This document shows, one piece after another, positions 32,711 through 34,234 of a DNA stretch of 64,000 nucleotides. Position 1 is the stretch's first letter, and each line of letters begins with the position of its first letter. The translations under genes were made by a program, and so were the position numbers. A model generated the notes under the pieces. That model made no database searches and was not told the origin of the DNA. It was given only the letters and a program-made list of their open reading frames with translations. Source of the DNA: Megalobrama amblycephala (lineage: Eukaryota > Chordata > Actinopteri > Cypriniformes > Xenocyprididae); the NCBI RefSeq assembly GCF_018812025.1, contig NC_063052.1:28229581-28293580 (forward strand). The letters are read 5' to 3'.

Positions 32711-34234
32711 ATGGATTTAACGGATGAGGTAAAGTTTTATAAATGTTGTGTTTGATGTCATAGTTTTATTATATTGAATTAGACCCGAGTAATGGAAGGT
32801 TTACAACGAATCTTTAGTCATAGATGTTAGAATATTTGTCCAATTCGATGGTGTGATAACACAGCACAGTTTCAAGTGTTCAAATCAGTATTAATAAATG
32901 TTATTTTGAACTTACCAATATCATTTGCATTAATGATTGATTCATATTTCTGTATAACACTAACTGTATTTATTTACATTGTTTAACTTGTCAGGTGAAA
33001 TAAGGCAGTGTAAATAAAGCAGTAAATAACCAAATGCAGTAACACTGCACCTGCATAAACTTTAGTCTTCAAGAAAACACATTTTTAATATATAAAATGA
33101 AGCATGGTGAATTGCAACTTCATTATGACCTAAGAATATGCACTTCACATAGTTATGTAAACTATTAAAAACATTTAATATTTTAAATTGTATATAATTA
33201 TGCATTGTCAGCAATATTGTAATATCTGTTTATATACATTTGTTTATATTTGTTTTGATGACATTTGACTGTGTTGCACAGGGAGACACAGATAGCTCTG
33301 TACTTGACTTTTCCATGTCAAAGGCTGATGAGACCTGGAGTCCTCCTCAGAGCAGCTGGCAGGAAGCATCACGTAGAAGAGCTACAGGTGCAGACAACAG
33401 TAAAAAGAAAGGGACAGGAAGAGCCAAAGGGTCAGGAAGAGCCAAAGGGACAGGAAGAGCTTCCAGAGTGGGAGAAACAGCTGAAGCTGCTGAACCCAGC
33501 TGTGGTGCTGCAGGAGGAAGATCAGTAAGTAGACGGAGAAGGTCTACAAGGGGACGACAGGCAGCTAGAGGGAGAGGAAGCACGGCATCATCTGGACTGG
33601 GTGAAGAGGACAGATTGAGGGTGTCTAGGCTGCAAGAGGAAAGGAGGTTGATGACACAAGTGCGTATGGACATACTTTAATTTTAAACAGTTATAAAATG
33701 AACAGTTTCTTAGTTTGGCATTACATTTTTTTTTTTTTTTCAGGAGATTGTAGGAAACATGAACCTGGATGAAGCTCAGGGACTCTTACAACGAGTTTTA
33801 AATAGAGAACCAGGTCTCATGTTTGATGTTCTTCAACCACCCATTTGTGAGGAACAACAACTACAACATGGTGTTCAATGATGTTCCTGTACAAGATGCA
33901 TTGAAATGCCAACAGATCTTGAAAAGAAATGTTGTGGCATGACACAGAGCACATGTGTAAGTGTGTTGCCCCACATGTCACTGTACATATTAGATGAACA
34001 CGTATTGCGTTTGTCCCGTCGTTTAAGAAATGACATATCCGCGACACACAGGAACCTGGGGATGACAACCGTGAGTACCGCTATGCTGCTTACATAAATT
34101 TTGTCTTGTGGCAGTGTGGTTCACTTGGGGCAGGAAACCGTGTGGTCATCCCCAGCTGCTGTGTGCGCAGAATCCGTGAAAAATTTCCAGACCCAAATGG
34201 CCAGTACACTGGATTCATTGCTGCTGTGTTATAA
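32711..34234 (+). pseudogene. P2X7 ballast-type zinc-domain protein gene of the transposon, broken
   Basis: Three exons by consensus splice sites: 32711-32728 (MDLTDE), 33282-33659 and 33744-34234. Exon 2 codes a basic, low-complexity RAKG-repeat and RS/RG-rich region, suggestive of nuclear or nucleic-acid binding. Exon 3 resembles the cytosolic C-terminal zinc 'ballast' domain of P2X7: PTDLEKKCCG, CVSVLPHMSLYILDE, then in another frame VLWQCGSLGAGNRVVIPSCC and a terminal GQYTGFI. There is no channel domain, so this is not a P2X receptor. A TGA at 33879-33881 replaces the Trp expected before the first CxC, and a frameshift lies at about 34035-34050, so this copy is dead. The role in transposition is unknown. 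Confidence 0.75.

What the first reader, a model, noticed from the sequence alone, without database searches (positions are those of the whole stretch)
32711..34234. P2X7 ballast-type zinc domain as the second gene of a Kolobok transposon
Between the same TTAA-flanked ends, tail-to-tail with the transposase, is a gene whose last exon matches the cysteine-rich C-terminal domain otherwise known from P2X7 receptors (VIPSCC, PTDLEKKCCG, GQYTGFI), fused to a basic repeat region and without a channel. This suggests that the ballast domain travels as a transposon accessory protein, which could explain how it reached P2X7. From memory, capture of this domain by a P2X gene has been proposed; the transposon link is my inference. 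This copy is broken by a TGA and a frameshift.
Basis: partly seen in the sequence, partly recalled or inferred. Interest (0 to 1): 0.85.

Follow-up and report, generated by a model that had tools for sequence, protein, structure and literature searches.

The report
P2X7 ballast gene in Kolobok transposon

The parts
32554..32571 (+). left end: TTAA target duplication plus AGGTACAGATTGTA terminus
44344..44361 (-). right end: TTAA target duplication plus AGGTACAATTTGTA terminus
32711..32728 (+). KolX exon 1 (MDLTDE)
   Evidence: ATG and GT donor
33282..33659 (+). KolX exon 2, basic Gly/Arg/Lys-rich region
   Evidence: AG and GT splice sites; no Pfam match
33744..34234 (+). KolX exon 3: helical stretch plus the ballast domain with all seven zinc cysteines; broken by one TGA and one frameshift
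43795..44024 (-). transposase exon 1
43125..43229 (-). transposase exon 2
42955..43029 (-). transposase exon 3
39718..39792 (-). transposase exon 4
39459..39548 (-). transposase exon 5
38857..39196 (-). transposase exon 6
   Evidence: genome search
38271..38556 (-). transposase exon 7
37615..37848 (-). transposase exon 8, catalytic D402 and D469
37423..37514 (-). transposase exon 9, DxxH motif (495-498)
37206..37310 (-). transposase exon 10
36866..37059 (-). transposase exon 11, H2CH residues 553/558/565/567
35192..35356 (-). transposase exon 12, catalytic E615
34841..35061 (-). transposase exon 13
34683..34723 (-). transposase exon 14 with stop
39878..42877 (.). later LTR-element insertion in a transposase intron (two identical 283-bp LTRs, GTTGC duplication); not part of the Kolobok

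Best explanation
A fossil copy of a two-gene Kolobok DNA transposon of the Kol0 type in a fish genome. Gene 1 is a DDE transposase that cuts and pastes at TTAA. Gene 2 is KolX, an accessory protein with a Gly/Arg-rich basic head, a helical stretch and the zinc 'ballast' fold that also forms the tail of P2X7. Shown: the ends, both genes, their convergent order, recurrence in the host genome, and the sequence and predicted-fold match to P2X7. Inferred (about 0.5): KolX works in the nucleus as a transposition co-factor, its basic head holding DNA or RNA and its zinc fold contacting the transposase or a host partner. Published and consistent with this: P2X7 arose when a P2X4-like gene gained such a KolX exon.
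For: Ends and empty site. Intact 750-aa transposase whose D-D-E triad, DxxH and H2CH positions are conserved among 120 listed relatives; a relative's model has IS256-type, P-element and Hermes transposases among its best matches. Ballast by Pfam, PDB sequence search with two sister copies and fold of a relative. Convergent transposase in 7 of 9 distinct ballast loci, none in 52 kb of window flanks. 3 of 9 transposase exon-6 matches, the window among them, lie within 20 kb of a ballast match, p about 2e-7 under uniform placement. Consecutive gene names in Mugilogobius chulae, WMY93_027086 (KolX) and WMY93_027087 (transposase), with the same longest-contig length. dN/dS 0.17-0.36 between same-family copies. 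24 of 27 measured N-termini net positive. PMC9587614 describes the same system.
Against: 6 of 9 transposase exon-6 matches have no listed ballast neighbour, so KolX may be dispensable, lost, or split beyond detection there. Two of nine distinct ballast loci have no transposase piece in 20 kb, and a third (C99) only one fragment. Only 10 of 37 other ballast places were fetched, the best-scoring ones. Pfam names no domain in the window transposase itself. No experiment on KolX function was seen in the papers read.
Confidence: 0.88

Rival explanations
1. The ballast gene is a host (nanor-like) gene into which, or beside which, a Kolobok inserted by chance.
For: Zebrafish nanor genes were reported as host genes with the same domain (PMC7016195 section 10). 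Two of nine distinct ballast loci here show no transposase within 20 kb.
Against: The gene lies inside the TTAA-flanked unit and the paralogous empty site lacks it. Seven of nine distinct loci repeat the convergent order, at least five of them between different end sequences.
Confidence: 0.04
2. The transposon captured the domain from P2X7 (the reverse direction).
For: Transposons do pick up host exons (established knowledge, recalled).
Against: KolX-like proteins occur in amphioxus, hemichordate, echinoderm and mollusc records, while typical P2X7 was reported only from bony fish and tetrapods (PMC7016195 section 9). In the unrooted tree the three P2X7 rows form one group among KolX rows.
Confidence: 0.03
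3. KolX is a regulator or anti-host-defence protein rather than a co-factor of cutting and pasting.
For: Accessory proteins of other Kolobok lineages are nucleases or helicases (PMC9587614 section 10), so the slot tolerates varied functions; some transposase copies lack a detectable ballast neighbour.
Against: Nothing tested here speaks specifically for it.
Confidence: 0.3

Closest known systems
Kolobok superfamily, Kol0 lineage with KolX (PMC9587614)
   Same: TTAA duplications, purine-purine (here AG) termini, DDE transposase with DxxH, second gene KolX with the P2X7 ballast fold and seven cysteines
   Different: Only this copy's details: AGGTACA ends, a 14-exon transposase, a broken KolX and nested later insertions. 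Placement in the published transposase tree was not tested.
P2X7 receptor cytoplasmic ballast (PDB 6u9v, 9e3o and others)
   Same: Zinc cysteines, fold, two GDP-site arginines; whole ballast in one last exon, as in the window gene
   Different: No channel. KolX has a basic head and an LGxGxR loop, which the three P2X7 rows lack.
Nanor and other ZCD proteins (PMC7016195)
   Same: Stand-alone ballast proteins with the domain at the C-terminus
   Different: Reported there as host genes; PMC9587614 says that their link to Kolobok had not been pointed out, and reads nanor as a domesticated KolX.

Membership tests
Kolobok superfamily | TTAA target-site duplication | tested here: met
   single-TTAA paralogous empty site
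Kolobok superfamily | 5'-RR...YY-3' termini (unlike piggyBac; PMC9587614 section 3) | tested here: met
   AGGTACA at both ends
Kolobok superfamily | DDE transposase with C/DxxH between second D and E | tested here: met
   D402, D469, D495xxH498, E615 conserved 95-100% of rows with a letter there, 121 rows aligned
Kolobok superfamily | zinc-finger residues (H2CH) between the second D and E, in nearly all lineages | tested here: met
   H553, H558, C565, H567 at 95-97%; metal binding not testable
Kolobok superfamily | THAP domain (usual, not defining; PMC6004289, passage) | tested here: inconclusive
   Pfam names no domain in the window transposase
Kol0 lineage | second gene KolX with ballast fold | tested here: met
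Kol0 lineage | place in the Kolobok transposase phylogeny | not tested
P2X7 ballast domain (PF20478) | seven zinc cysteines in three clusters | tested here: met
   all present in the window row, read across its frameshift
P2X7 ballast domain (PF20478) | ballast fold | tested here: met
P2X7 ballast domain (PF20478) | zinc and guanine-nucleotide binding | not testable with these tools
   residues present; binding needs a bench test
P2X receptor | ATP-gated channel domain | tested here: not met
   exon 2 and the longer frame around it give no Pfam match
piggyBac | termini other than RR...YY next to TTAA (CC...GG type, recalled) | tested here: not met
   ends begin AG

The most novel reading that the evidence does not exclude
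P2X7 took its tail not from the fish Kol0-type transposon of this window but from a separate KolX branch (nearest rows P0239, P0254, P0257 and a sea-cucumber protein). It then lost the LGxGxR loop that KolX keeps for its transposon job, while keeping the zinc site and the arginines that hold guanine nucleotide. KolX would thus be a zinc- and perhaps nucleotide-sensing transposition factor whose sensing half was reused in an ATP receptor.
Probability: 0.3. Interest if true: 0.6.

Novelty: already known. Interest (0 to 1): 0.3.

Why it matters
It confirms independently, inside one genome, that a domain of a drug-target immune receptor travels as a transposon gene. In practice, many short proteins named 'P2X purinoceptor 7-like' in fish and invertebrate records look like KolX proteins, not receptors. 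Conservation of the zinc cysteines and two GDP-site arginines across KolX gives a testable handle on what the P2X7 ballast does.

Tried and rejected
Cys-poor half-ballast: many genome hits cover only about profile 140-192, and I first thought that a truncated, cysteine-poor form existed. At C24:2.37M the CxCxxC and CC cluster is in a separate exon, so the partial hit there is an intron-split KolX. The other partial hits were not resolved this way.

Viral contigs: of 20 stretches matching a pattern of the KolX alignment none encodes a relative. NCBIfam gave nothing for three proteins. A Pfam scan of separate transposase ORF pieces gave only sub-threshold hits. hmmsearch hits beyond model position 735 come from C2H2 finger arrays fused in some homologues and were dropped from the count; without that, C77 and C27 would show hits too. 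Lesions in KolX (two) against none in the longer transposase are too few to argue that KolX decayed first.

End pairs: every TTAA pair around nine places was compared and the best five per place printed; no shuffled control was run. I took the AG-type pair. At C6 a perfect 16-base pair 17 kb apart without AG ranked above it; at C18 the best pairs begin AA and are not claimed; C27, C99 and C1:73.0M have no clear pair.

Not reached: a genome-wide map of transposase exon 8 and of both element ends, and the flanks of 27 further ballast places.

Full report
What is there. The window lies in a 1.11-Gb genome (G000:C9:28229581-28293580). A unit at 32554-44361 begins and ends with TTAAAGGTACA, of which the window has two exact copies and one with a mismatch; 16 of the first 18 bases match between the ends. 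The left and right flanks, joined, align over about 315 bases to a neighbouring tandem-repeat unit with one TTAA and no insert. This gives the boundaries and the 4-bp duplication without relying on the termini alone.

Transposase. On the minus strand 14 exons with AG...GT borders splice to 750 aa without a stop. Pfam names nothing in it, but relatives are plentiful: 188 proteins at E<=0.001, the best 120 listed, in fish, amphioxus, hemichordates and molluscs, some carrying PF20700. With those 120 aligned, D402, D469, E615, the DxxH motif and an H2CH set between the second D and E are conserved in 95-100% of the rows that have a letter there, as described for Kolobok (PMC9587614 sections 3 and 10; PMC6004289, passages only). 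A model of relative P0031 (mean pLDDT 76) has ISCth4 (IS256 type, recalled), P-element and Hermes transposases among its best 12 Foldseek matches, beside retroviral integrases: an RNase-H-type DDE enzyme.

Recurrence. The genome has 40 PF20478 matches at E<=0.001 (93 candidates scored, a lower bound). Two, both on C12, I take to be P2X7: the longer one groups with human and mouse P2X7, but its channel exons were not checked. One is the window. I fetched +-10 kb of 10 of the other 37 places, the ten best by E. Two of the ten have identical ballast codons (C1:73.0M and C77), leaving nine distinct; C27 and C99 are near-copies in the ballast. Seven of nine have transposase pieces in convergent order (C6, C1:17.06M, C11, C18, C99 as one fragment, and two on C24); C27 and C1:73.0M have none within 20 kb; 52 kb of window flanks have none. 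Paired TTAA+AG ends bracket the genes at C1:17.06M, C6, C11 and both C24 places (picked from the best five pairs, no shuffled control), with different end sequences, so these are different Kolobok families. Conversely, a genome search with transposase exon 6 gave 9 matches: 3, the window included, have a ballast match within 20 kb (p about 2e-7 under uniform placement) and 6 do not.

Conservation. I gathered 146 ballast rows (137 proteins, five host-genome exons, the window and three P2X7); one was dropped for covering under 80% of 116 columns, leaving 142 KolX-like rows and three P2X7. Of those with a letter there, the seven zinc cysteines are conserved in 96-100%, and the residues aligned with rat R546 and R578 (my mapping from PMC7016195) in 96% and 95%. 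The L, G, G and R of an LGxGxR loop are 95-97% in KolX and absent from the three P2X7 rows. Many rows are close fish relatives, so the percentages overstate independence. Ballast codons of same-family copies give dN/dS 0.24 and 0.36 (window against C18, two frames) and 0.17 (C1:73.0M against C11): the protein was under purifying selection while these families moved. Of 27 N-termini long enough to measure, 24 have net positive charge (15 above +5) and 21 at least one RG[R/K]-type triplet (no control set), pointing to nucleic-acid binding. That function is inference.

P2X7 origin. In a 51-row tree of the domain (116 columns) a 99/98 branch separates P2X7 plus 18 KolX rows from 30 rows that include the window family, other fish, amphioxus, hemichordate and mollusc proteins. 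P2X7 sits with P0239, P0254, P0257 and sea-cucumber P0243 (92/95, not starred). Holding P2X7 with the window family is rejected (AU p 0.0062); holding it with the whole 30-row side is not (p 0.09). Only three P2X7 sequences were used, I chose the 51 rows after a quick 145-row tree, the domain is short, branches are long and the root is not inferred.

Prior art. PMC9587614 (Kojima & Bao 2022; [quoted passage not shown] PMC7016195 (Rump 2020; [quoted passage not shown] it already notes that R546 and R578 are the widely kept GDP-site residues. So a P2X7 group apart from nanor-like proteins is not new either; what I add is the test against this transposon family. Searches for 'P2X7'+'Kolobok' (2 papers; the second, PMC9319628, seen in the listing only), 'KolX' (1) and 'P2X purinoceptor 7-like'+'transposon' (0) in the held library found no other treatment. 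I saw no mention of the LGxGxR loop in the parts read.

Verdict. The remaining open points are which KolX branch was the donor and what KolX does.

Noticed in passing
39878-42877: Very young LTR element (two identical 283-bp LTRs, GTTGC duplication) with proline/alanine-rich repeats, inserted in a transposase intron.
   Followed up: partly
36454-36852: AT-rich element with perfect 48-bp inverted ends (CCCACATGGAAAAAACC), in a transposase intron; a similar array lies at about 35479-35800.
   Followed up: no
32013-32553 and from about 44460: Tandem units of about 218 bp carrying GGGTCAAAAATGACCC; the Kolobok inserted into one of them.
   Followed up: partly
28127-32000: Retroviral-like gag/pol remnants on the minus strand, judged by eye from the open frames, with stops; observed only.
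   Followed up: no
proteins P0041, P0049, P0059 and others: Several fish transposase homologues are recorded with C2H2 zinc-finger domains: possible host-transposase fusions or annotation artefacts.
   Followed up: no
own genome C24:2.37M and C24:1.90M: A second, diverged Kolobok lineage in the same convergent layout; at C24:2.37M the ballast is split by introns.
   Followed up: partly
own genome C1:53.07M, C1:32.55M, C15:26.04M, C1:9.98M, C1:19.32M, C108:91k: Transposase exon-6 matches without a listed ballast match within 20 kb; flanks not fetched.
   Followed up: no
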